Part shown: one piece after another, positions 6,015-18,546 of the stretch | Numbering within the stretch: position 1 is the stretch's first letter | Layout: each line of letters begins with the position of its first letter | NCBI RefSeq assembly: GCF_002198655.1 | Contig: NZ_MWLN01000191.1 | Span: 1 to 64,000, forward strand | Length of the DNA: 64,000 nucleotides | Source of the DNA: Kineosporia sp. A_224 | GTDB taxonomy: Bacteria > Actinomycetota > Actinomycetes > Actinomycetales > Kineosporiaceae | Direction: 5' to 3' | Program-made: the position numbers and the translations under genes | Notes under the pieces: model-generated | Told to the model about the DNA's origin: nothing | Databases searched by the model: none | What the model saw: only the letters and a program-made list of their open reading frames with translations

Positions 6015-7253
6015 CTAGTCGGTTCGACCGAGAACAGAAGCCATGCGAGCCTCGGCCTCGTCGATGGCGGTGATCTGGGCGATGATCTCGCCGGGTGACT
6101 TCTCGCCGACCTGCTTTTGCAGGAGGGGGGTGTGGTCCAGGACGAGGTCGCGGAGCGGGCGCAGCGGCGCTGGGGCGTGGTGGAACACCTTGCCGAGCAC
6201 CCAGGCGGCCTGGACCTGGGCGGCGGTGTGCGGCTTGCGCGGCGTCTCGAACGCGTCGAGCGCCGCACGGACGGCGGCGTGGTCGCTCAGGTCGACGCCG
6301 GCGAGCCGGCGTCCGAGGAAGAAGCCGTCCTCGGTGGCCATGCCTGCCCCGTAGGCGGCGTACGGGCTGGTGGGGTGCGCGGCGTCCCCGACGAGCGTCG
6401 CACGGCCCTTGGACCACTGCGGCAGGGCGGGTCGGTCACGCAGCACCCAGCGCTGGACGTGGCCGGGTTCGGTCGCGGCGATCAGCTGCGGCAGCGGCGC
6501 GGCGAACCCGGCGCCCATGCCGGTCGCGGTGGCGTGCAGGTCGCCGCTGAAGTCCGGGGACGCGTCGTGGGCGCCGAGCACCCACCACTGGTAGCCGTGC
6601 CGGCCCTTGCTGCGGATGGAGGTCCAGCTGCCCTGGACGGTGCGGCTGTGGGAGACGATGCACAGCCCCCGCTCGGCCTCCGGGACGTCGTCGAAGGTGT
6701 ACCCGCCGAAGATGTGCAGGTTGTGCTCGCGCTTGGGGGCGTCTCCCCACAGGGTGCGCCGGACCAGGGAGTCGATGCCGTCGGCGCCGACGAGGACGTC
6801 GACCTCGAGGGTCTCGCCGTCCGCCAGGTGCAGTCTCACGCCGGTCTCGTCCTGGTCGACCCGTTCGACCGTGCGGTTGACCTGCAGGACGCCCGGCGGC
6901 AGCGCCGCGAGCATCCGCTCGTACAGGTCCGGCCGGAGCAGCCCGATGAACCCGCCGCCGTACGCGTCGACGATCTCCTGCGGCAGGTTGACCCTCACCC
7001 TGGTCCGCCCGGCTGCGGTCCGGAACTCCGAGTAGCAGGGGGCGCCGAGGTCGGTGGTGTCGACGCCCAGCAGGCCGAGCGCCTTGATGGGTGGCGGCCA
7101 CAGGTTGAGGATGTTGCCCGCGGGCCGGGCCTGCGGGTAGCGCTCGAGCAGGACGACGTCGTGGCCGGCCTGGTGCACCGACAACGCGGACGCCATGCCG
7201 GCCGGGCCGGCGCCGATCACGGCGACGCGGCCACGCTTGGGGGTGGGACTCAC
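6015..7253 (-). CDS. FAD-dependent aromatic-type monooxygenase
   Basis: This 412-residue protein belongs to the p-hydroxybenzoate-hydroxylase-like flavoprotein monooxygenases. An N-terminal Rossmann motif VIGAGPAGMASAL (about residue 11) binds FAD. The DG motif is seen in VLVGADGIDSLVRR (about residue 155), and the ribityl-binding GD motif in LVGDAAHPTSPYAAYGAGM (about residue 290). The family hydroxylates aromatic, polyketide or antibiotic substrates with NAD(P)H and O2; the substrate here is unknown. An ABM-domain monooxygenase lies 146 bp upstream on the same strand, with a divergent TetR beyond, suggesting an inducible detoxification or catabolic set. It is inside island 1. Confidence 0.85.
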   Translation of the reverse strand: MSPTPKRGRVAVIGAGPAGMASALSVHQAGHDVVLLERYPQARPAGNILNLWPPPIKALGLLGVDTTDLGAPCYSEFRTAAGRTRVRVNLPQEIVDAYGGGFIGLLRPDLYERMLAALPPGVLQVNRTVERVDQDETGVRLHLADGETLEVDVLVGADGIDSLVRRTLWGDAPKREHNLHIFGGYTFDDVPEAERGLCIVSHSRTVQGSWTSIRSKGRHGYQWWVLGAHDASPDFSGDLHATATGMGAGFAAPLPQLIAATEPGHVQRWVLRDRPALPQWSKGRATLVGDAAHPTSPYAAYGAGMATEDGFFLGRRLAGVDLSDHAAVRAALDAFETPRKPHTAAQVQAAWVLGKVFHHAPAPLRPLRDLVLDHTPLLQKQVGEKSPGEIIAQITAIDEAEARMASVLGRTD

Positions 7254-7399
7254 GGAGGCCTCCTCGTTGAGGGACGGACGGGACGTTCGCGCGCAGGACT
7301 CCCGCCGGAACGGGTGGCGCGAGAGCCGCGGCGGCGATGGACCGGACCGGGCGGACGACGACCGGCGGGATCAGTAGGGATCCATCGGGTCTTCGGGGA

Positions 7400-7696
7400 T
7401 CAGCTGGGATCGGGCACGTGATGGAACGCCATCCGGGGCGTGCCGTCGAGCAGGTCCCCGACCCGGGCGATGAACTGCTGGGTGTGCGGGTGTGACATGT
7501 GCGCGTCCAGGGCCACCTGGTCGCGCCAGGTCTCGATGCTGACGATCGTGTCGGCGTCGTCCAGGGCGGCGTAGAAGCCGTACGACAGGCAGCCGTCGTC
7601 ACCGCGCGTCGCGGCGGCGATGTCGGCCGCTGCGGCCACCAGGTCCTCCCGGCGGCCTGGAAGGGCACGGGCGGTGCCGAGGACGATGAGCACCAT
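7400..7696 (-). CDS. Antibiotic-biosynthesis-monooxygenase (ABM) domain protein
   Basis: This 98-residue ferredoxin-like protein begins MVLIVLGTARALPGRRED. The core YGFYAALDDADTIVSIETW followed by DAHMSHPH is typical of ABM/YgiN-type quinol or anthrone monooxygenases, which work without cofactor. The ATG at 7696 is chosen because GAGGAG lies 3 bp upstream of it. It precedes the FAD monooxygenase and is divergent from the TetR gene. The two oxygenases may act in sequence on one aromatic substrate; this is inferred from adjacency. Confidence 0.8.
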   Translation of the reverse strand: MVLIVLGTARALPGRREDLVAAAADIAAATRGDDGCLSYGFYAALDDADTIVSIETWRDQVALDAHMSHPHTQQFIARVGDLLDGTPRMAFHHVPDPS

Positions 7697-7880
7697 TTCT
7701 CCTCTGGAGTGGCCAGTCATCGAACCGTAGCGTGCGCTACGGTTCAGAGGGAGGGTGCGGTGTGACCCACGCCGCTGTCAACCCCCAGCACCGATTCGAG
7801 GGGACTCCTCGGGCACGTCCGGACCCTGGTGCCCGCGGACGACGTTCCAGCCGTGGCCGGGCATCGAGGAGGATGAGGAC

Positions 7881-8534
7881 GTGACGTCTCCGGCACCCGA
7901 CGACTCCGGCTCCCTGGAGGTGCGCCCACCCCTGCAGAGACGCAGCCGGGAGGCCTGGGGTCGCGTCCTCGACGCCGGCGTGGAACTCCTCGAGGAGGGC
8001 GGCTACGAGGCGTTCACCATCGCCGCGGTGTGCGAACGGGCCCAGGTGGCCCCGCGGGCGCTCTACGCACGGGTCGACACCAAGGACGCACTGTTCCTCG
8101 CGGTCTACGAGCACGGACTGGAACGCGTCCGCAGCGACCAGGCGGCACTCACCCACGAGGCCAGGTGGGCCGGTCTGTCGGCCGAGGACGTCATGGACCG
8201 GGCGGTGCGCGAGGTGGCGGGCATCTTCCGCCGGCACGCCGCGTTCCTCCGGCCAGTGGTCCTCATCTCCGGCGCCCACGCCGAGGTCTACCGCCGCGGC
8301 GGGGCATACAGCCGCGAGCTCGGCGACCAGTTCACCACCCTGCTCCTGCGTGCCGGCGCCGCTGCCGGAGAGCCCGACCCCGAACGCAGCGTCCGGGCAG
8401 CGTTCAACACGATCTTCTCCACCCTGGTGGTGCGTACCGCCTACGGGCCGACCTTCGCAGTGCCGGCCGCCGATGACGAGGACTTCGTCGACTCCCTGGC
8501 CGTCATGGTGAGGCGGTACCTCGCCCCGCGGTGA
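7881..8534 (+). CDS. TetR/AcrR-family transcriptional regulator
   Basis: This protein has about 217 residues from GTG 7881, which follows GAGGAGGATGAGGAC. The helix-turn-helix spans about residues 20-65, with FTIAAVCERAQVAPRALYARV. A C-terminal TetR ligand domain follows. An in-frame upstream extension to 7755 lacks a ribosome site and conserved character. It is divergent from the ABM gene and probably represses the two monooxygenase genes. It is the last gene before the second tRNA-Phe repeat. Confidence 0.85.
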   Translation: MTSPAPDDSGSLEVRPPLQRRSREAWGRVLDAGVELLEEGGYEAFTIAAVCERAQVAPRALYARVDTKDALFLAVYEHGLERVRSDQAALTHEARWAGLSAEDVMDRAVREVAGIFRRHAAFLRPVVLISGAHAEVYRRGGAYSRELGDQFTTLLLRAGAAAGEPDPERSVRAAFNTIFSTLVVRTAYGPTFAVPAADDEDFVDSLAVMVRRYLAPR

Positions 8535-9114: not shown

Positions 9115-10086
9115 TCAGGCCTTGCGTTTGGCGGCCTCGTCGGTGGCCTGCGGGAGGACGGCGAACAGGTCGCCGACAACGCCGAAGTCGGCGAGCTCGA
9201 AGATCGGCGCCTCGGCGTCCTTGTTGATCGCGACGATCGTCTTGGACGTCTGCATGCCCGCCCGGTGCTGGATCGCACCGGAGATCCCGCACGCGACGTA
9301 CAGCTGCGGCGAGACCTGCTTGCCGGTCTGGCCGACCTGGTTGGAGTGCGGGTACCAGCCGGAGTCGACCGCGGCCCGGGACGCGCCCACGGCCGCGCCG
9401 AGGACGTCCGCGAACGCCTCGACCTTGGAGAAGTCGCCGTTCGTGCCCCGCCCGCCGGAGACGACGATCGCGGCCTCTGTGAGGTCCGGGCGACCGGACT
9501 TGGCCTTCGGCTTGCGCTCGACGACCTTGACCGCCTTCGCGAGGTCGGACAGCGTCACCGACACCGGCGTCGCGTCGACCGGAGCGCCCGCGACGGGCTG
9601 CGGCTCCACGCTGTTCGGCTTCACCGTGACGACCGGCAGCCCGCGGGTGACGGTGGAGTCGACGGTGAACCCGCCGGCGAACGCCGCCTGGCTCGTCGCC
9701 ACGCCGCCGCCGTCGGCCGCGCGGACGTCGATCGCGTCCGTGATGAGGCCCGAGTCGAGCTTGAGCGCGAGCCGGGCCGCGATCTCCTTGCCCTCCGCCG
9801 AGCTCGGGACGAGCACGGCGGCGAGCGCGGACGCGCCGCCGGCGGCCTCGACGACCGCGGCGAGCGCCTCGGCCTTGGCCAGCACGAGGTAGTCGTTCAC
9901 CTCGGCCGGCACCGTGTAGACCGCGGTGGCGCCGAACTCGGCGAGCGACCCCGCGGCGTTGTCGTAGCCGTCGCCGACGAACACCGCGGCCGGCTCACCG
10001 AGCCGCGCCGCGAACGTCAGCAGCTCCGACGTCGACTTGCGCACCGCACCGTCGACGTGGTCGACGAGCACCAGAACCTGTGCCAT
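9115..10086 (-). CDS. etfA: Electron transfer flavoprotein, alpha subunit
   Basis: This 323-residue FAD-binding subunit has the C-terminal ETF-alpha signature: IVVSGGRGTNGDF, then GQTGKQVSPQLYVACGISGA, then IVAINKDAEAPIFELADFG. These contact FAD and the beta subunit. The ATG at 10086 follows GGAGAG; an N-terminal extension in the same frame overlaps etfB and is rejected. ETF accepts electrons from dehydrogenases such as trimethylamine and dimethylglycine dehydrogenases. It is the last gene of the island 2 operon, which makes it the likely acceptor for the TMADH-like flavoprotein encoded upstream. Confidence 0.95.
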   Translation of the reverse strand: MAQVLVLVDHVDGAVRKSTSELLTFAARLGEPAAVFVGDGYDNAAGSLAEFGATAVYTVPAEVNDYLVLAKAEALAAVVEAAGGASALAAVLVPSSAEGKEIAARLALKLDSGLITDAIDVRAADGGGVATSQAAFAGGFTVDSTVTRGLPVVTVKPNSVEPQPVAGAPVDATPVSVTLSDLAKAVKVVERKPKAKSGRPDLTEAAIVVSGGRGTNGDFSKVEAFADVLGAAVGASRAAVDSGWYPHSNQVGQTGKQVSPQLYVACGISGAIQHRAGMQTSKTIVAINKDAEAPIFELADFGVVGDLFAVLPQATDEAAKRKA

Positions 10087-10124
10087 CTCAGCTCTCTCCT
10101 TGTCCAGGCTCTCTCGATCGACCG

Positions 10125-10916
10125 TCAGACCAGCTTGGCGCCGGCGAGGAACTCGACCAGCTTCGCGCCGCCGTCGCCCTCGTCCGTGACGACCGTGCCG
10201 GCCGCGCGCGGCGGCCGCTGGGTCACGCCCGCGACCGTCGTCCACGCCGCGCCGAGGCCGACCTCGCCCGCGTCGACGCCGAGGTCGGCGAGCGTCAGCG
10301 TCGTCACCGGCTTCTTCTTCGCCGCCATGATCCCCTTGAACGACGGGTACCGCGGCTCGTTGATCTGGTCCGTGACGCTGATCAGCGCCGGCAGCGCCGA
10401 CTCCACGACCTCGGTCGAGGTGTCACCGTCACGCTCGATGACGACCTTCGCTCCCGGCCCGTCACCCTCGATCGACAGCGACCCCGCGAACGTCACCTGC
10501 GGCAGCCCGAGCCGGTCGGCGACCAGCGCCGGCACGACGGACATCCCGGCGTCGGTCGAGGCCATCCCGGTCACGACGACGTCGTACTCCAGCGTCGCGA
10601 TCGCCTTCGCCAGCACCAGCGACGTCGCGAACGCGTCCGACCCGTGCAGCGCGTCGTCCACCACGTGGACCCCGGCGTCGGCACCCATCTGCAACGCCTT
10701 GCGCACCGCGTCCGACGCCGCGTCCGGACCCACCGTCACTACGGTCACCGTGGAGCCGTCGTTCGCCTCGGACAGCTTGAGCGCCTCCTCGACCGCGTAC
10801 TCGTCGAGCTCGGACAGCAGCCCGTCGACCCCGGCCCGGTCCACCGTGTGGTCGGCTGCGAAGCGACGGTCGCCCTGGGCGTCCGGCACGTGCTTCACAC
10901 AGACGACGATTCTCAT
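10125..10916 (-). CDS. etfB: Electron transfer flavoprotein, beta subunit
   Basis: This 263-residue protein starts MRIVVCVKHVPDAQGDRRF. It carries the ETF-beta AMP-binding region around VTGMASTDAGMSVVPALVADRLGLPQVT and the C-terminal SFKGIMAAKKKPV recognition loop. Its AAGGAG ribosome site overlaps the folD stop codon (TAAGGAG), so it is translationally close-coupled to folD. It pairs with etfA 38 bp downstream. Placement beside one-carbon genes rather than acyl-CoA dehydrogenase genes points to a methylamine or N-methyl amino-acid dehydrogenase as electron donor. Confidence 0.95.
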   Translation of the reverse strand: MRIVVCVKHVPDAQGDRRFAADHTVDRAGVDGLLSELDEYAVEEALKLSEANDGSTVTVVTVGPDAASDAVRKALQMGADAGVHVVDDALHGSDAFATSLVLAKAIATLEYDVVVTGMASTDAGMSVVPALVADRLGLPQVTFAGSLSIEGDGPGAKVVIERDGDTSTEVVESALPALISVTDQINEPRYPSFKGIMAAKKKPVTTLTLADLGVDAGEVGLGAAWTTVAGVTQRPPRAAGTVVTDEGDGGAKLVEFLAGAKLV

Positions 10917-10927
10917 AGCGGAACTCC

Positions 10928-11803
10928 TTACGGTGCAACGGATGAGTGTTCAGGCGTCCGGCGTTCGGCGGTCTCGACGACGTTGGTGAGCAGCATCGCG
11001 CGGGTCATGGGGCCGACGCCGCCGGTGGCTGGGGCGAGGTGGCCGGCGACGTGGGTGACGTCGGGGTGGACGTCACCGAGGATGCCTTCCACGGTGCGGG
11101 TGATCCCGACCGACAGGACGGTGGCGCCAGGGCGGACCCATTCGGGGCGGACGAGGTGTGCGACGCCGGCTGCGGCGACCACGATGTCGGCGACGGCGGT
11201 GTGTGAGGCGACGTCTTCGGTGGCTTCGTGGCACAAGGTGACGGTGGCGTGCTCGGTGGGTCTGGTGAGCATGAGGCCGAGCGGACGGCCGACGGTCATG
11301 CCGCAGCCGATGACGCAGACCTGCGCGCCGGTGATCCGGATGTCGTTGCGGCGTAGGAGCTCGATGATGCCCCGCGGGGTGCAGGGTTGGGGCCCGGGCA
11401 TGCCCAGGACGAGGCGGCCGAGGTTGGTCGGGTGCAGGCCGTCGGCGTCCTTGCCCGGGTCGACGAGGTCGAGGACGGTGTGGGTGTCGACCTGGGCCGG
11501 GAGCGGGAGCTGGACGATGAAGCCGGTCACGCCGGCGTCGGCGTTGAGTTGGTGGACGGCGTCCTCGACATGTGCCTGGCTCGCGGTGGCGGGGAGGTCG
11601 ACCCGGGTGGAGGTGATGCCGACCTGCTCGCAGTCGCGGTGCTTGCCGGCGACGTAGGCGTGGCTGCCCGGGTCGTCGCCGACGAGGATTGTTCCCAGGC
11701 CCGGCTGGCGGCCCGCAAGGCGCAGCGTCATGACACGCTCGGCGAGTTCGGCCTTGATGGCTGCGGCCGCCTTCTTGCCATCGAGCAGGGTCGCGGTGAC
11801 CAC
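10928..11803 (-). CDS. folD: Bifunctional methylene-THF dehydrogenase / methenyl-THF cyclohydrolase
   Basis: This 291-residue FolD shows [12 protein letters not shown] with the catalytic Tyr and Lys, [13 protein letters not shown] and [14 protein letters not shown]. The dinucleotide-binding stretch reads [17 protein letters not shown], and the C-terminal motif is [13 protein letters not shown]. It oxidises 5,10-methylene-THF to 10-formyl-THF with NADP. The GTG at 11803 follows GAGG. It lies 27 bp after purU in the same operon. A dedicated copy here would drain one-carbon units produced by demethylation; a housekeeping folD probably exists elsewhere, which cannot be seen in this window. Confidence 0.93.
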
Positions 11804-11830
11804 GGTCTACCTCCCCGGTGCTGTCGGGTC

Positions 11831-12691
11831 CTAGTGGAAGACGACGGTGCGGTGGCCGGCGAGGACGACGCGGTCCTCGGCGTGCAACCGCAGGGCGCGG
11901 GCAAGGACGACGCGTTCGACGTCGCGGCCGATGGCTACGAGGGTGTCGGCGTCCTGGGCGTGGGTGACGCGGACGACGTCCTGCTCGATGATCGGGCCCT
12001 CGTCGAGGTCGGCGGTGACGTAGTGCGCGGTGGCGCCGATGAGCTTGACGCCGCGTTCGTAGGCCTGGTGGTACGGCTTGGCGCCCTTGAAGCCGGGCAG
12101 GAAGGAGTGGTGGATGTTGATGACCCTGCCCGAGAGCTTGCGGCAGGCGTGGTCGGAGAGCACCTGCATGTAGCGGGCGAGGACGACGACGTCGACGGTG
12201 TGCTGCTCGATGAGATCGAACAGGAGCGATTCGGCCGCGGCCTTGCTCGTCGGGCCGTCGGGCATTTGGGTGACGGGGATCCAGTGGAAGCCGATGCCGT
12301 GCCGGTCGGCGATCTCCTGGGTGTCGGGGTGGTTGGAGACGATGATCGGGATGTCGACCGCGAGTTCGCCGAGCTGCTGCCGGTAAAGCAGGTCGACGAG
12401 GCAGTGGTCGAACTTGGACACCATGAGCAGGACTCGCTTGCGCTGGCCGGTGGGGCGCAGGGTGACGACCGGGTCGAACCGTCGGACCCGGTCCAGGATC
12501 TGTGTGCGGACGCCGTCGACGTCGCCGTCCGGGCTGTCGAACTGGGTGCGGACGCAGAAGGTGCCGGTGACCGGGTCGGAGAACTGGGCGTTCTCGACGA
12601 TGTTGCCCCTGACCTCGACGATGCCGTCCGCGAGGGCACGAACGATGCCGGGCTGGTCGGGGCAGGTCAGGGTGAGGATGTACTGCTGCAC
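11831..12691 (-). CDS. purU: Formyltetrahydrofolate deformylase
   Basis: This 286-residue protein starts at GTG 12691 (MQQYILTLTCPDQPGIV), preceded by GGAG; a longer in-frame GTG at 12730 is less likely. An N-terminal ACT domain (residues 1-80) precedes a formyltransferase fold. The latter carries the catalytic region VINIHHSFLPGFKGAKPYHQAYERGVK and ATAHYVTADLDEGPIIEQD. It hydrolyses 10-formyl-THF to formate and free THF. In this operon it would complete methyl group to methylene-THF to formyl-THF to formate and regenerate THF for the GcvT-like enzyme. Confidence 0.93.
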   Translation of the reverse strand: MQQYILTLTCPDQPGIVRALADGIVEVRGNIVENAQFSDPVTGTFCVRTQFDSPDGDVDGVRTQILDRVRRFDPVVTLRPTGQRKRVLLMVSKFDHCLVDLLYRQQLGELAVDIPIIVSNHPDTQEIADRHGIGFHWIPVTQMPDGPTSKAAAESLLFDLIEQHTVDVVVLARYMQVLSDHACRKLSGRVINIHHSFLPGFKGAKPYHQAYERGVKLIGATAHYVTADLDEGPIIEQDVVRVTHAQDADTLVAIGRDVERVVLARALRLHAEDRVVLAGHRTVVFH

Positions 12692-12810
12692 GATGGCTCC
12701 GGGTTCGTGGGTGGTTCCGGGCGGCGGCACGACGGTGCGCGCCTGAAGACCACCTGGCAGCGGTGGACCTGGCGGCGTGGCGGGTGTTCGAGGCGTGGCT
12801 GTGTCAGACG

Positions 12811-13941
12811 TCAGGAGCGGACGCGGGTGCGTTCCGGGTCGTAGACGGGGGTTGCCTTCACGATGGCGGACGTCGTGGCGCCGTCGACGCCGACGGTCGT
12901 GAGCGTGGTCCCGGGCTTGGCGGCGTCCTGGTCGACGCGGGCCATGGCGAGGGTGGCGCCGCCGAGGTGCGGTGACGGGACGGCCATCGTCACGTGGCCG
13001 ACGTCGGTTCCGTCGAGGAGAAGCCGGGCGCCTTCGGCGGCTTCAGGCGCGGCGTCGATCTGGACGGTGACGACGCGGCCGCGGACGGTGCCCTTCTTGG
13101 CGCGCAGGGCGTTCTTGCCGAGCCAGGGTCCCTTGTCGAAGTCCAGGGCCCAGCCCATCCGGCACTCGTACGGGGTGACCGTGTGGTCGTACTCGAGCTC
13201 ACCCATGATCATGCCGGCTTCGATGCGGCACATCATGAGGGCGGCGGCGCCGAAGGGGCGGGCACCGATGTCGGCGCCGGTGTCGGTGACGGCGTCCCAC
13301 AGGGTGAGGGCGTGCTGGCGGGGCACGACGATCTCGTAGCCGAGCTCGGCCGTGAAGCCGACCCGGTTGACCTGCGCCGGGACGCCGGCGACGGTCAGGT
13401 CGGTGCGGAACGTGTAGTACGGGAACGCCTCGTTCGAGAGGTCGGCGTCGGTGAGCCGGGCCAGGACGTCTCGGCTGCGCGGCCCTTGCAGGGTCAGGAC
13501 GGCGGTCTCGTCGCGGCGCTCAGTCACCGTCGTCCCGTTCCCGGTGGCGTCCTGGAGGAGCTCGGCGGTGGTCGGGTTGCCGCCGACGACGAGCACCTCG
13601 CGGGCGGAGAGCACCGAGACGGTGACGTCATCGACCATGCAGCCGTCGGCGTCGGTGACGACGCCGTACGCGATCCGCCCGACCGGCTGCGTGGTGACGT
13701 TGTGGGAGAACACCGCGTCGACAACGGCGACGGCGTCCGGGCCTTCGACGGACCACTTGTGGAGCATGGAGTACTCGCTGAACCCCACCGTGGTGCGGAT
13801 GGCGGCGTACTCCTCGCCGGGATCTCCCGACTCGCTGAGGATCAGTGGGACGGCGTGGCCGTAGACGTCGATCCACTCGGTGACGGTGTCGGCGTAGCGG
13901 GGCGAGAACGGCGTCGGGCGCAGGTTCTCCGGGATGGCCAT
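12811..13941 (-). CDS. GcvT-like tetrahydrofolate-dependent aminomethyltransferase / demethylase
   Basis: This 376-residue member of the GcvT/YgfZ/DmdA/LigM superfamily shows GFSEYSMLHKWSVEGPDA, then the catalytic-type acid in DGCMVDDVTVSVLS. The folate-contacting region GFTAELGYEIVVPRQHA is present, as is the C-terminal domain ending VKATPVYDPERTRVRS. It is not the glycine-cleavage T protein: no gcvH or gcvP is nearby, and it follows a TMADH-like dehydrogenase gene by 46 bp. Expected role: transfer the methylene released by oxidative N-demethylation onto THF. An O-demethylase role of LigM type is an alternative, but the flavoprotein/ETF partners favour N-demethylation. Confidence 0.82.
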   Translation of the reverse strand: MAIPENLRPTPFSPRYADTVTEWIDVYGHAVPLILSESGDPGEEYAAIRTTVGFSEYSMLHKWSVEGPDAVAVVDAVFSHNVTTQPVGRIAYGVVTDADGCMVDDVTVSVLSAREVLVVGGNPTTAELLQDATGNGTTVTERRDETAVLTLQGPRSRDVLARLTDADLSNEAFPYYTFRTDLTVAGVPAQVNRVGFTAELGYEIVVPRQHALTLWDAVTDTGADIGARPFGAAALMMCRIEAGMIMGELEYDHTVTPYECRMGWALDFDKGPWLGKNALRAKKGTVRGRVVTVQIDAAPEAAEGARLLLDGTDVGHVTMAVPSPHLGGATLAMARVDQDAAKPGTTLTTVGVDGATTSAIVKATPVYDPERTRVRS

Positions 13942-13987: not shown

Positions 13988-16129
13988 TCAGCCGAGAAGG
14001 GTTGCTGCGCCGAGGGTGTAGTCGTCCTCGGTGGCGCCGACGAGGCGGCGTTCGCGGATGTACGGCAGCGGGACGTCGGGGTTCGGTGAGTCGATCTCGC
14101 GGGCGAGGCGGTGCCCGGAGAAGGTGGCCTGGGCGATGATGCCGGGCGAGTGGGCGTCGCCGACGAGGTGGAGCTGGCTGATGCCGGCTTCGTCGAGGGC
14201 GGCCTGGTCGTCGGCGAGCTCGTCGTACAGGGCGCTGTCGCTGTAGCGGCCGGTGACCAGGGCGAGGGAGTCGACGTCGAGGGTGACCTCGTTGCCGCCC
14301 CACAGGTGCACGAGCTGGGCCTTGCCGGGCTCGTAGGAGAGCACGAGGTGCTGGGACAGGATCGTGACGCCGAGCTCGGTGAGCCGCTGGTACATCCGCT
14401 GCTCCTCGAGGGTGTACCGCAGGTAGGGGCCGAGGGTCTCCCAGTGGGTGGCGTAGGTGACTCGTCTGCCCTGCCGGGCGAGGAACTCGGCGGTGGTGGA
14501 GGCCATGTGGTAGCCGTCGCCGTCGACGACCAGGACGTGGTCGCCGAGCTGCTTGCCCTCGACGACGAGCTGCTCCGGGGTGGCGACGTCCGGGCGGGTG
14601 GCGTCGGCCCCGGCGATAGGATCGTGGGTGGGGGTGTTCATCCCGTCGCCGGCCCAGTGGGCGCCGGTGGCGACGATGACGATCTCGGCGCCGTACTCGC
14701 GGACGTCCTGGGCGCTCATCCGGGTGTTGGGAATGAACTGGACGTTGTCGAGCTTGGAGATCTGCCGCTCGCGGTACTCCGCGACCCGGCGCCAGGCGCG
14801 CAGTCCGGGCATGGTCGTCATCCAGTTGAGGTGGCCGCCCATCTCGGACCCGGCGTCGACGAGGTGGACGGCCTCGAAGCCGCGCTTGCCCAGGACGACG
14901 GCGGCCTCCATCCCGGCCGGTCCGGCGCCGACGACGAGGACGGGCTTGTCGGCGTTGCGGGCGGTGCTGAACTTCTCCGGGTGCCAGCCGCGGCGGTACT
15001 CCTCGCCGCTGGTGGGGTTCTGGGTGCACCAGATCGGCGGGCCGCCCATCTCCCAGCGGGAGACGCACACGTTGCAGCCGATGCACTCGCGGATGTCCTC
15101 GAACCGGCCTTCCTCGATCTTCTTGGGCAGGAACGGGTCGGCGATCGAGGGGCGGGCGGCGCCGATGATGTCGGCCTGCCCGGAGTTGATGACGCCGATC
15201 ATGACGTCGGGGTCGGTGAAGCGGCCGACGTTGATGCACGGCTTGCTGGTGGCCTGCTTGGCGACCTTGACGTACTCGGCCTCGTGGTTGGTGTCGAAGA
15301 ACCGGCTGGAGCCGGCGTCCTCGCCCCAGTTCAGGGTGCCGACGTTGAGGTCCCAGTAGTCGACGAGGTGGTCCAGGGCGGCGATGAAGTCCTTGCCCTC
15401 TCCGTTCGCGCGGACCCCGAGGTCGCCGTAGCCGTACGGGTCCTCGAGGGTGTCGATGACGAACCGCATCCCGATCGCGACGCCGTCGACCTCGGAGCGC
15501 AGGTCCTCGAGGACCTCTCGGGTGAACCGGATCCGGTTCTCGAAGGAGCCGCCGTACTCATCGGTGCGCTTGTTGTAGAACGGGTACAGGAAGTAGATCG
15601 GGAAGGTGCCCAGACCCGCGTAGAACGTGAGCAGGTCAAAGCCGGCGTCCTTGGCCCGCTTGAACCCCTCGACGTGCTCGCGGCGCAGCGCCGCGATCTC
15701 CCGCTTGGACAGCGCCCGGCCGTTGGCCAGGTAGTTGATGTCGCTGGCGATCTGGGAGACGACCTTGGCCGGGGCGCGGGTCTCGGCGTTGGCGGCCAGG
15801 CCGCCCGGGTGGCACAGCTCGACACCGGCCAGGGCGTCGTGGGCGTGGATCGCGTCAGTCATCTCCCGCAGGTTGCGCACGTCGCCGGCGTCCCACAACT
15901 TGCTCGCGACCCACGGCATGACGTCCCCGCCGGGGGCGATCGAGCAGACCTCGGTGAAGACCGCCGACCAGCCGCCCTCGGCCTTCATGCCGCGGAACGC
16001 CGCCTGGAAGCCCGGCCGGTCCGACCCGGCGCCGTTGCAGTGCGGGACCTGCCAGAAGCGGTTCTTCAGGGTGTGCGGGCCGATCTGGATCGGCTCGAAC
16101 AGGACGTCATACTTGGCCTCGCGAGGCAT
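13988..16129 (-). CDS. Trimethylamine-dehydrogenase-like iron-sulfur flavoprotein (probable N-demethylating dehydrogenase)
   Basis: This 713-residue protein has the full TMADH/dimethylamine dehydrogenase architecture: an N-terminal FMN TIM barrel, a 4Fe-4S site and a C-terminal Rossmann pair. QVPHC places Cys31 where TMADH forms its cysteinyl-FMN bond. The cluster motif CIGCNVCVSRWEMGG ends with a fourth Cys (PIWCTQNP). Trp and Asp of the substrate pocket are kept in LNWGEDAGSSRF, and Trp in SRWEMGG. However, the TMADH Tyr60 position is Val (FTEVCSI), and the Tyr169/His172 region reads FYAGLGTF, so the substrate probably is not trimethylamine. Relatives (from memory) act on dimethylglycine and N-methylproline. 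Neighbours supply transport, THF and ETF. Confidence 0.85.
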   Translation of the reverse strand: MPREAKYDVLFEPIQIGPHTLKNRFWQVPHCNGAGSDRPGFQAAFRGMKAEGGWSAVFTEVCSIAPGGDVMPWVASKLWDAGDVRNLREMTDAIHAHDALAGVELCHPGGLAANAETRAPAKVVSQIASDINYLANGRALSKREIAALRREHVEGFKRAKDAGFDLLTFYAGLGTFPIYFLYPFYNKRTDEYGGSFENRIRFTREVLEDLRSEVDGVAIGMRFVIDTLEDPYGYGDLGVRANGEGKDFIAALDHLVDYWDLNVGTLNWGEDAGSSRFFDTNHEAEYVKVAKQATSKPCINVGRFTDPDVMIGVINSGQADIIGAARPSIADPFLPKKIEEGRFEDIRECIGCNVCVSRWEMGGPPIWCTQNPTSGEEYRRGWHPEKFSTARNADKPVLVVGAGPAGMEAAVVLGKRGFEAVHLVDAGSEMGGHLNWMTTMPGLRAWRRVAEYRERQISKLDNVQFIPNTRMSAQDVREYGAEIVIVATGAHWAGDGMNTPTHDPIAGADATRPDVATPEQLVVEGKQLGDHVLVVDGDGYHMASTTAEFLARQGRRVTYATHWETLGPYLRYTLEEQRMYQRLTELGVTILSQHLVLSYEPGKAQLVHLWGGNEVTLDVDSLALVTGRYSDSALYDELADDQAALDEAGISQLHLVGDAHSPGIIAQATFSGHRLAREIDSPNPDVPLPYIRERRLVGATEDDYTLGAATLLG

Positions 16130-16272: not shown

Positions 16273-17742
16273 TCAGGTGAGCTCGCTGTCCAGGTCGGCC
16301 AGGGCGGTGGCGCCGATCCGGGACTCCGTCGCGGCGAAGAGGATCAGTCCGACGATGAACGCTGTCGGCACGGTCAGCGCGAGGATCGTCGGCAGCCCGC
16401 CGGTGCTGCCGATGAGGACGTCGAAGTTGGCGATGATGAGGACCAACGCTGCGCTCATGGCGACCGCTGCGAGCACCGGCGCGATCTTGGTGTTCCACGC
16501 CCGGCCGTCCAGGGTCGGGTTGTTGCGGAAGAAGACGAACGCCGCGACCGCGACAAGGATGTAGAGGGTCACGACGCCCACGACGGCGATTCCCGAACCC
16601 CAGAAGAACAGGGTGAGCACCGGGTCCTTGCCGAGGATCGCGAACGGCAGGACCAGCAAGGCGGCGATCGCGGTCTGGGTGAACGAGGCGATGTACGGGG
16701 CCTTGGTCTTCGGGTGCACCTTGGCCAGCGGTGCGGGCAGCACCCCGTCGCGGGACAGCGTCCACAGGTACCGGGCGATGCCGTTGTGGAAGGCCAGGTT
16801 GCACGCGAACATCGAGGTGATGACGAAGACGGTCATCGCGTGCGGGGCCCAGGCTCCGAGGTAGGTGCCGCCGGCGTCGAAGACGTACGCCGCCGGGTTG
16901 CCGCTCTCCAGGGTCTTGCCCGCGACCTCGATGGCCTTGCTCGGGCCGTAGCCGACGACCAGCGCCCAGGAGTTGAACGCGAAGAACAGCGTGATCGCGC
17001 CGAGCGCGGTGAACGTGGCCCGCGGGATGGACCGCTTGGGGTCGCGGACCTCCTCGCCGTAGATCGCGGTCGACTCGAACCCGAACATCGACGCGAACGC
17101 CATCACCAGCGCGACCCCCGGGGCGCCGGAGAGGACGGCCGACGGACTGAACACGTCACCGACGGCATAGCCCTCACCGGCGCCGCCCTTGGCGAAGATG
17201 ACCACGCTCAGGACGATGATCGTGCCCCACTCCAGGGCCATGAGGACGCCGAGGAGCTTGGCGCCGACCTCGACGTGGAGGTACCCGAAGACCTGCACGA
17301 GGAGCATCAGCCCGAACGTCAATGCCCACCACGGGACCGACACCCCGAACCACTCGGCGACCGCGCCGGAGGCCACCGCTCCGAAGAACCCGTAGACGGC
17401 GATCTGCACGGTCACGTAGGCCCAGATCGCGATGCTCCCCGCGCCGAGCCCCATCCGCAGCCCGAGGCCGCGCCCCACGTACGCGTAGAGCGCACCCGTG
17501 TTGGTCACCTGCCGGGACATCGCCACGTAGGAGACGCCGAACAGGGCCAGGATCAGCCCGACCACGATGTACGCGGCCGAGGCACCCAGACCGTTGCCGA
17601 GGACCATGGCGGTCGGGACCGCACCGGTAAGCCCGATCAACGGGCTGGCCGCGGCCAGGACGAGGAACACCACCCCGGTACTGCTGATGGCGTTGCGTTG
17701 CAGACCTTCTTGCACGGGCTGGGTGTTCACGGTGTCGCTCAC
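16273..17742 (-). CDS. APC-family amino acid / amine permease
   Basis: This protein of about 489 residues has 12 or more predicted membrane helices. It contains the APC N-terminal motif GVVFLVLAAASPLIGLTGAVP and FGFESTAIYGEEVRDPKRSIPRAT, which is typical of amino acid permeases. The GTG at 17742 (MSDTVNTQPVQEG) is chosen because AGGAG lies 7 bp upstream; a frame extension to 17820 has no ribosome site. It heads the minus-strand island 2 operon and should import the methylated substrate for the flavoprotein. Its APC class suggests a zwitterionic amino-acid-like substrate rather than a simple amine. Confidence 0.88.
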   Translation of the reverse strand: MSDTVNTQPVQEGLQRNAISSTGVVFLVLAAASPLIGLTGAVPTAMVLGNGLGASAAYIVVGLILALFGVSYVAMSRQVTNTGALYAYVGRGLGLRMGLGAGSIAIWAYVTVQIAVYGFFGAVASGAVAEWFGVSVPWWALTFGLMLLVQVFGYLHVEVGAKLLGVLMALEWGTIIVLSVVIFAKGGAGEGYAVGDVFSPSAVLSGAPGVALVMAFASMFGFESTAIYGEEVRDPKRSIPRATFTALGAITLFFAFNSWALVVGYGPSKAIEVAGKTLESGNPAAYVFDAGGTYLGAWAPHAMTVFVITSMFACNLAFHNGIARYLWTLSRDGVLPAPLAKVHPKTKAPYIASFTQTAIAALLVLPFAILGKDPVLTLFFWGSGIAVVGVVTLYILVAVAAFVFFRNNPTLDGRAWNTKIAPVLAAVAMSAALVLIIANFDVLIGSTGGLPTILALTVPTAFIVGLILFAATESRIGATALADLDSELT

Positions 17743-17827
17743 GACCACACTCCTGGAGGCGGAGGCCGACCCGGGCAGCACTGCTCGGGCGGACTGCTGG
17801 CGCCGTGCCGGCGTGACCATGAGAATC

Positions 17828-17925: not shown

Positions 17926-18546
17926 GTGACCGCAGAGCCCGTCGGCACCGGCCTGACAGCCGAGGACGGCGAGGGCCGAGACCGGCCCCGCTACGGCGAG
18001 GGCCGCGAGGCGCTCCTGCGTGCCGCCATCCGAGTCGTCGCGACGTCCGGGCTGCGCAACCTCACTTACCGGGCGGTCGCCCGCGAGGCGGGCGTCACGC
18101 ACGGCCTCGTCGCTCACCACTTCGGCTCACGCGACACCCTGCTCGAGGAAGCCCTCCGCTACAGCCTCCAGCTCAGCGTCGAGACCAGCTCACTGGAGTC
18201 CGGCACCGGGCAGATCGACGACTTCGCCCGCGACCTGCCCGAGTTCGTCGACAGGGAGCCCGACGTCCAAGCGTTCCAGTACGAGCTCATCCTCGAGTCC
18301 CGCCGCCGCCCCGAGCTGCGGCCTTACGTCGAGGAGCTCTACGACTACTACCGCGGTGCAGCGCGCCGCGAGCTTGCCCGGCTCGGGATCCAGGACCCCG
18401 CACTCGCCGACGTCGCCTATGCCGCGCTCGACGGCCTCGTCTTCCAGCAGATCTCGGTCGCCTCTCCCGAGAACACCCGGAGGTCGGTCGACGCTTTGCG
18501 GACCATGCTGCTGGCGGCCAGAGACGCCCCGCCGGCCCGCGACTAG
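17926..18546 (+). CDS. TetR-family regulator of the demethylation operon
   Basis: This 206-residue protein has an N-terminal helix-turn-helix (about residues 25-70) containing LTYRAVAREAGVTHGLVAHHFGSRDTLLEEAL, and a C-terminal helical domain. The GTG at 17926 follows GGGAGGAG. It is divergent from the permease gene with a palindromic operator in between, so it most likely represses the operon at 9115-17742 until the substrate or a metabolite binds. It is the last gene of island 2. Confidence 0.88.
   Translation: MTAEPVGTGLTAEDGEGRDRPRYGEGREALLRAAIRVVATSGLRNLTYRAVAREAGVTHGLVAHHFGSRDTLLEEALRYSLQLSVETSSLESGTGQIDDFARDLPEFVDREPDVQAFQYELILESRRRPELRPYVEELYDYYRGAARRELARLGIQDPALADVAYAALDGLVFQQISVASPENTRRSVDALRTMLLAARDAPPARD

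What the first reader, a model, noticed from the sequence alone, without database searches (positions are those of the whole stretch)
13988..16129. TMADH-like enzyme with a re-built substrate pocket
The cysteinyl-FMN Cys, Fe-S cysteines and two pocket Trp/Asp positions are conserved. The residue aligned with TMADH Tyr60 is Val, and the Tyr169/His172 segment is replaced by Gly/Leu-containing sequence. The cofactor machinery is therefore intact but the methylamine-binding aromatic bowl is altered, predicting a new specificity.
Basis: partly seen in the sequence, partly recalled or inferred. Interest (0 to 1): 0.7.

Follow-up and report, generated by a model that had tools for sequence, protein, structure and literature searches.

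The report
TMADH-family demethylase with rebuilt active site
This actinobacterium carries a relative of the enzyme that strips methyl groups from trimethylamine, but in this relative and its kin in three bacterial phyla the substrate pocket and a key histidine are changed in the same way, so it very probably demethylates a different, still unknown, larger methylated amine.

Summary
The gene (window 13988-16129, MINUS strand, 713 aa) is real and is a TMADH-family 6-S-cysteinyl-FMN/[4Fe-4S] enzyme: best PDB match TMADH (738 bits; model TM-score 0.92). It was wrong on Tyr169, which is kept. What is lost is His172 (Leu) and Tyr174 (Thr), so the Tyr-His-Asp triad is broken as well as the bowl. A Trp gained at TMADH Arg72 partly re-supplies an aromatic wall. 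Sixteen orthologues (59-77% identical) from Actinomycetota, Pseudomonadota and Acidobacteriota form one clade (100/100 support) with Val/Ile60, Trp/Phe72, Leu172 and Thr/Asn174 throughout, outside TMADH, DMADH, HADH and StcD/HpbA. Nearly all sit beside a co-evolving, separately encoded T-protein (Tdm/DMGDH-like folate domain). The window operon is APC permease, demethylase, T-protein, PurU, FolD, ETF-beta/alpha. Best reading: an N-demethylase of an unidentified, bulkier N-methyl amine or N-methyl amino acid; formaldehyde is caught by tetrahydrofolate and oxidised to formate, electrons go to ETF. Substrate untested. New variant of a known kind.

The parts
13988..16129 (-). TMADH-family flavin/[4Fe-4S] N-demethylase, 713 aa (the finding)
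   Evidence: phmmer TMADH 738 bits; Foldseek TMADH 2tmd TMq 0.92, rmsd 2.3; Pfam Oxidored_FMN + Pyr_redox_2
16037..16039 (-). codon for Cys31 = TMADH Cys30 (6-S-cysteinyl-FMN)
   Evidence: gap-free alignment
15947..15949 (-). codon for Val61 = TMADH Tyr60 (bowl residue lost)
   Evidence: Val/Ile in 16/16 clade members
15911..15913 (-). codon for Trp73 = TMADH Arg72 / HDH Phe72 (aromatic gained)
   Evidence: Trp 15/16, Phe 1/16; HDH Phe72 lines the pocket (PMC10180351)
15620..15622 (-). codon for Tyr170 = TMADH Tyr169 (kept; Phe in most proteobacterial members)
15611..15613 (-). codon for Leu173 = TMADH His172 (triad His lost)
   Evidence: Leu in 16/16 clade members, His in all others but one
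15605..15607 (-). codon for Thr175 = TMADH Tyr174
15317..15328 (-). codons for Trp268 to Asp271 = TMADH Trp264 and Asp267 (kept)
15026..15085 (-). [4Fe-4S] motif C349-x2-C352-x2-C355 ... C368, with Trp359 = TMADH Trp355
12811..13941 (-). stand-alone T-protein (GcvT-like folate enzyme), 376 aa
   Evidence: GCV_T + GCV_T_C; best NCBIfam match TMAO demethylase C-domain 236 bits over GcvT 180, below GcvT cut-off 300; co-evolves with the demethylase
11831..12730 (-). PurU, formyltetrahydrofolate deformylase
   Evidence: TIGR00655 323 bits, above cut-off
10928..11803 (-). FolD, methylene-THF dehydrogenase/cyclohydrolase
   Evidence: NF010789 424 bits, above cut-off
10125..10916 (-). ETF beta subunit
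   Evidence: 95% identical paralogue elsewhere in the genome
9115..10086 (-). ETF alpha subunit (likely start 10086; the open frame runs up to 10245)
   Evidence: PF00766/PF01012; start and ribosome-binding site read from sequence
16273..17820 (-). APC-family amino acid/amine permease, first gene of the putative operon
   Evidence: TIGR00909 and related models, below cut-offs
17926..18546 (+). divergent TetR-family regulator
   Evidence: PF00440, PF17940; TetR genes also flank several orthologous loci

Best explanation
It is the dehydrogenase of an N-demethylation operon. An N-methyl amine larger than trimethylamine (most likely an N-methylated amino acid or a bulky, possibly aromatic, N-methyl amine; the substrate is not identified) is imported by the APC permease. 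The 6-S-cysteinyl-FMN oxidises one N-CH3; Trp268/Trp359 still hold the methyl-amine end while the space freed at Val61/Cys106/Leu173/Thr175 takes the larger substituent. Electrons pass through the [4Fe-4S] cluster to ETF. The released formaldehyde is joined to tetrahydrofolate by the separate T-protein; FolD and PurU oxidise and hydrolyse it to formate, regenerating THF. Shown here: family, fold, cofactor residues, pocket and triad changes, clade, gene order, co-evolution with the T-protein. Inferred: reaction, substrate size, electron acceptor, formaldehyde route, co-transcription.
For: Fold and family. Cofactor residues invariant. Pocket set Val/Ile60, Trp/Phe72, Gly/Ala/Ser74, Cys/Val/Ala/Thr105, Thr167, Leu172, Thr/Asn174 shared by 16 orthologues in one 100/100 clade, separate from TMADH (Y60/R72/S74/W105/H172/Y174) and DMADH-type Q60/T74/F105. 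Operon with folate C1-oxidation genes and ETF. T-protein adjacent in nearly all clade loci, one good copy per genome in 11 of 12 genomes; distance matrices correlate r=0.92, 0 of 2000 permutations as high. PurU also near the gene in Aeromicrobium, Gemmobacter and a Solirubrobacterales genome. GbcA-like Rieske oxygenase (betaine demethylase type) near the gene in two phyla.
Against: No activity data. Model confidence is low exactly at pocket loops (residues 69-74, 265-276, 352-373) and coordinates could not be superposed, so pocket geometry rests on sequence alignment. Distances are shaped by the shared clade tree, so the co-evolution test alone does not prove a functional pair. One Thioglobus genome has the enzyme without a T-protein. 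Neighbouring catabolic genes differ between lineages and do not converge on one substrate.
Confidence: 0.72

Rival explanations
1. Still a trimethylamine or dimethylamine dehydrogenase: the pocket drifted but the substrate did not change.
For: TMADH is the closest characterised enzyme, about 48-50% identical; Trp264, Trp355, Asp267 kept; Aminobacter aminovorans carries a (frameshifted) copy.
Against: Canonical pockets are kept unchanged in Azoarcus (L039) and G073 (L009) relatives of similar divergence, and Paracoccus aminovorans keeps Q60/T74/F105. The clade has its own conserved set including loss of the triad His, hard to explain by drift.
Confidence: 0.1
2. N-demethylase of an N-methyl amino acid or of the dimethyl intermediate of a betaine; the product enters central metabolism without further enzymes.
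For: The window, Aeromicrobium and Gemmobacter modules hold essentially transporter, demethylase and C1 genes; APC amino acid permeases or carboxylate-type TTT transporters; GbcA-like Rieske oxygenases adjacent in L020 and L032.
Against: No conserved Arg/Lys appears among the changed pocket positions to bind a carboxylate; StcD/HpbA, the known N-methylproline demethylase, is only 29% identical.
Confidence: 0.35
3. N-demethylase of a hydrophobic or aromatic N-methyl amine (phenethylamine or aryl amine type).
For: Pocket changes are to small or hydrophobic residues plus a new conserved Trp72 and Phe57. Ring-cleavage genes near clade loci: HpaD-like LigB in Thioglobus, gentisate-type cupin plus FAH hydrolase in three alphaproteobacterial loci, gamma-glutamyl ligases in L026/L036.
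Against: These neighbours are several genes away, differ by lineage, and are absent beside the window gene; chance proximity in catabolic islands is possible.
Confidence: 0.3
4. An amine dehydrogenase that deaminates (as histamine dehydrogenase does) rather than demethylates.
For: Same fold; position 72 aromatic as in HDH.
Against: T-protein, PurU and FolD linkage means one-carbon units are made; HADH-specific Gln/Glu60 and Glu74 absent and Trp355 present. The genome already has a separate HADH.
Confidence: 0.07

Closest known systems
Trimethylamine dehydrogenase (TMADH, Methylophilus methylotrophus, PDB 1djn/2tmd)
   Same: Fold, domain order, Cys30-FMN, [4Fe-4S] Cys set, Arg222, Trp264, Asp267, Trp355
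   Different: Tyr60->Val, Trp105->Cys, His172->Leu, Tyr174->Thr, Arg72->Trp, short insertion near window residues 229-235; separate clade
Dimethylamine dehydrogenase type (Paracoccus aminovorans L038, Q60/T74/F105)
   Same: Same family and cofactors
   Different: Val60/Ala74/Cys105; His172 lost; L038 falls with TMADH, not with this clade. That Q60/T74/F105 marks DMADH is from memory of the Hyphomicrobium sequence paper
Histamine dehydrogenase (3k30, 6de6)
   Same: Fold, cofactors; aromatic at position 72
   Different: HADH keeps the Tyr-His-Asp triad, has Gln/Glu60, Glu74, no Trp355; own paralogue in this genome
6-hydroxypseudooxynicotine dehydrogenase Pno/HisD (6l6j)
   Same: TMADH-family enzyme acting on a bulky N-methyl amine, ETF as acceptor (PMC7688666)
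   Different: FMN not covalent (Ala at 30), triad His kept, HADH branch, deaminates to methylamine
TMAO demethylase Tdm, dimethylglycine dehydrogenase/oxidase, heterotetrameric sarcosine oxidase
   Same: T-type folate domain catching formaldehyde from N-demethylation
   Different: There the folate domain is fused to an unrelated catalytic domain; here it is a separate protein beside a TMADH-fold enzyme
StcD/HpbA N-methylproline demethylase
   Same: OYE/TMADH superfamily N-demethylase
   Different: 29% identity, no Cys30

Membership tests
TMADH (EC 1.5.8.2) | Three-domain TMADH fold | tested here: met
   AF2 model, Foldseek TMq 0.92/TMt 0.90 to 2tmd
TMADH (EC 1.5.8.2) | Cys30 for 6-S-cysteinyl FMN and four Fe-S Cys | tested here: met
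   C31, C349, C352, C355, C368
TMADH (EC 1.5.8.2) | Aromatic bowl Tyr60/Trp264/Trp355 | tested here: not met
   Tyr60 is Val; Trp264 and Trp355 kept
TMADH (EC 1.5.8.2) | Tyr169-His172-Asp267 triad | tested here: not met
   Tyr and Asp kept, His is Leu in all 16
TMADH (EC 1.5.8.2) | Groups with characterised TMADH to the exclusion of other specificities | tested here: not met
   Separate 100/100 clade; TMADH groups with Azoarcus and the DMADH-type protein
TMADH (EC 1.5.8.2) | Trimethylamine activity | not testable with these tools
   needs enzyme assay
DMADH | Gln60/Thr74/Phe105 | tested here: not met
   Val/Ala/Cys; the signature itself is recalled, not looked up
Histamine dehydrogenase | Gln60, Phe72, Glu74, triad Tyr-His-Asp (PMC10180351) | tested here: not met
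   Only the aromatic at 72 is shared
StcD/HpbA | Orthology to N-methylproline demethylase | tested here: not met
   29% to the only pSymB homologue, which is 74% to annotated HpbA
DgcA | Orthology to Pseudomonas DgcA | not tested
   No verified DgcA sequence was reachable in the collections used
GcvT (glycine cleavage T-protein), for the neighbour gene | NCBIfam GcvT cut-off | tested here: not met
   180 bits vs 300 (PRK00389) and 150 vs 236 (TIGR00528); Tdm C-domain scores higher, 236

The most novel reading that the evidence does not exclude
A triad-less TMADH-fold N-demethylase whose substrate is neutral at physiological pH (low-pKa N-methyl amine, for example an N-methyl aryl amine): loss of the cation-binding Tyr60 and of the His that would deprotonate a cationic amine would both follow, and the enzyme would work as a two-protein system with a detached folate domain.
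Probability: 0.2. Interest if true: 0.65.

Novelty: new variant of a known kind. Interest (0 to 1): 0.45.

Why it matters
It marks out an unnamed subfamily, spread over three phyla and into marine Thioglobus and freshwater/soil Rhodobacterales, that general annotation calls 'FAD-dependent oxidoreductase'. Its substrate would be a piece of the unknown methylated-nitrogen cycle. It also gives a natural experiment on whether the TMADH His172 triad residue is needed for amine oxidation, and a case of a folate domain kept as a separate partner instead of fused to the demethylase.

Tried and rejected
StcD/HpbA identity: rejected, 29%. HADH identity: rejected; the real HADH is a paralogue on contig 109. 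DMADH: rejected by pocket and tree. A single substrate from synteny: not reached; neighbours (APC, TTT, PotABC-like transporters, sulfatase, LigB, gentisate-type cupin, gamma-glutamyl ligase, Rieske) differ by lineage. Homarine pathway, looked for in papers: nothing usable. Mutant kinetics of TMADH H172Q/Y169F: not in the held library. Side-chain volume sums give about 95-270 A3 less side chain than TMADH at ten aligned positions (154 A3 for the window), but without coordinates this is only a hint. The orthologue scan used peptide seeds such as FWQVPHCN, YFLYPFYN and DHLVDYWD, so invariance at TMADH positions 25, 181 and 253 is partly ascertainment; the seeds do not cover positions 60, 72, 105, 167, 172 or 174.

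Full report
Observation. The ORF lies exactly at 13988-16129, but on the minus strand, 713 aa, with strong coding signature (GC3 0.97). Pfam finds Oxidored_FMN plus Pyr_redox_2. No curated NCBIfam model reaches its cut-off (best TIGR03997, 336 of 793 bits), so it is an unclassified member of a known superfamily. phmmer against the PDB puts TMADH first at 738 bits, then histamine dehydrogenases at 556 and 526. An AF2 model from 20 window/locus sequences (pLDDT 81.5, pTM 0.83) matches TMADH 2tmd with TMq 0.92 and rmsd 2.3.

Residues. In the gap-free alignment to TMADH, Cys30, the four Fe-S Cys, Arg222, Trp264, Asp267 and Trp355 are kept; Tyr60 is Val61. His172 is Leu173 and Tyr174 is Thr175. Also changed: Tyr167->Thr, Trp105->Cys, Asp69->Val, Arg72->Trp. 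In Rhizobium histamine dehydrogenase the active site is Gln60, Phe72, Glu74, Tyr171, His174, Arg225, Trp263, Asp265 with triad Tyr171/His174/Asp265 (PMC10180351); these correspond to TMADH positions 60, 72, 74, 169, 172, 222, 264, 267. So here the triad is Tyr-Leu-Asp, and the aromatic at 72 is an HDH-like wall that TMADH lacks. (In 6de6 and three relatives the automatic alignment shows Cys at 267 because of a gap shift; the paper's Asp265 is the equivalent.)

A clade, not a single oddity. Scans of genome contigs and plasmids gave orthologues of 59-77% identity: Aeromicrobium, Acidimicrobiaceae, Solirubrobacterales, four Thioglobus-type gammaproteobacteria, another gammaproteobacterium, Vicinamibacterales (Acidobacteriota), and alphaproteobacteria including Fertoeibacter, Tabrizicola, Rhizobium sp., and Gemmobacter and Aminobacter plasmids. 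Sixteen full-length sequences, the window's included, form one clade with 100 UFBoot / 100 SH-aLRT. All have Val/Ile at 60, Trp/Phe at 72, Thr at 167, Tyr/Phe at 169, Leu at 172, Thr/Asn at 174, and Trp264, Asp267, Trp355 and Cys30. Relatives of similar divergence keep canonical pockets: Azoarcus L039 and G073 L009 are TMADH-like (Y60, S74, W105, H172, Y174); Paracoccus aminovorans L038 has Q60/T74/F105. His172 was lost only twice on the tree: in this clade and in a Rhodococcus plasmid protein (L037). The gene is rare: in a sample of 396 genomes of its order and 396 of its phylum no other genome had a close copy (best 51-52%), so horizontal spread is likely.

Not other named enzymes. The only TMADH-superfamily protein found on S. 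meliloti pSymB, where stcD is reported (PMC12239276), is 29% identical and itself 74% identical to annotated HpbA N-methylproline demethylase. The genome's true histamine dehydrogenase is a separate gene on contig 109, 1051 bits to 3k30. Pno/HisD (6l6j), a family member for a bulky N-methyl amine, lacks Cys30 and is on the HADH branch (PMC7688666). DgcA was not tested.

Gene context. Minus-strand order: APC permease, demethylase, T-protein, PurU, FolD, ETF-beta, ETF-alpha, with gaps of about 11-143 bases, and a divergent TetR gene. The T-protein is closer to the C-terminal folate domain of TMAO demethylase than to glycine-cleavage GcvT, keeps the Asp-Asp and Glu-Leu-Gly-Tyr-Glu motifs aligned with the folate site of T-proteins and the Tdm-like C-terminus, is the only good copy in 11 of 12 orthologue genomes and lies next to the demethylase. 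Its distance matrix follows the enzyme's (r 0.92, 0 of 2000 permutations), which shows shared history, not proof of interaction. PurU with THF-dependent sarcosine oxidase is a known pairing (PMC3691474). The window ETF pair is a duplicate of the host's own ETF: 89% DNA identity over 1.8 kb to contig 176, and that housekeeping copy is present in sister species.

Mechanism. Shown: family, cofactor residues, pocket/triad changes, clade, synteny. Inferred: oxidation of an N-CH3, electron flow FMN -> [4Fe-4S] -> ETF (by analogy with TMADH and Pno), formaldehyde capture as methylene-THF, FolD/PurU to formate. Since Trp264/Trp355/Asp267 stay, the N-methyl end probably binds as in TMADH; shrinkage at 60, 105, 172, 174 leaves room for a larger group. 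From general knowledge, TMADH mutants at His172 and Tyr169 keep some activity, so loss of the His need not abolish catalysis; this could not be checked in the library.

Substrate. GbcA-like Rieske oxygenases beside L020 and L032, and APC and TTT transporters, favour betaine or N-methyl amino acid intermediates; the hydrophobic pocket and nearby ring-cleavage or gamma-glutamyl ligase genes in some loci favour aromatic or bulky amines. A Streptomyces canus plasmid carries a 69% identical T-protein with PurU and FolD but no TMADH-like gene annotated nearby, close to P450s and a dihydroxyphenylacetate dioxygenase, so the C1 part can serve other demethylases. The evidence does not decide; I put about 0.35 on the amino acid type and 0.3 on an aromatic/bulky amine.

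Verdict. A real, clade-wide rebuilt active site in a TMADH-family N-demethylase; new variant of a known kind; substrate open.

Noticed in passing
window 9115-10916 and L086 (contig 176) 4317-6120: The operon's ETF alpha/beta pair is 89% identical in DNA to a second ETF pair that sister species also have, so a host ETF seems to have been copied into the demethylation operon.
   Followed up: partly
L044/L045 (Streptomyces canus plasmid NZ_CP107732.1): T-protein (69% identical)-PurU-FolD cassette without a TMADH-like gene nearby, in a catabolic island with P450s, glutamine-synthetase-like ligase, APC permease and a dihydroxyphenylacetate dioxygenase.
   Followed up: partly
L037 (Rhodococcus sp. 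NBC_00297 plasmid) 10001-12166 and L041 (G534): Two sister sequences with different rebuilt pockets (A60/L74/M105/M169/I172 and L60/L74/G105/Q169/H172), the Rhodococcus one beside a P450 and a VanB-type reductase.
   Followed up: no
L010 and L011 (G095, G084): TMADH-like proteins with Ser in place of the Fe-S ligand Cys348, pocket otherwise near TMADH.
   Followed up: no
L036 12001-14149 (Aminobacter aminovorans pAA02): The orthologue is split into two annotated ORFs, apparently a frameshift, downstream of a cluster that looks like heteroaromatic-ring catabolism.
   Followed up: no
L090 (G534 contig 541) 2729-10711: A sister species has another likely demethylation operon: APC permease, a second ETF pair (87-93%), distant T-domain protein, PurU.
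   Followed up: no
window 6015-8534: Downstream unit: TetR gene (+), ABM monooxygenase and FAD aromatic-hydroxylase-like gene (-); relation to the operon unknown.
   Followed up: no
L018/L019/L021/L027 and L022: Thioglobus-type genomes and a Vicinamibacterales genome share a TTT transporter and a PehA-like sulfatase/phosphoesterase near this demethylase.
   Followed up: partly
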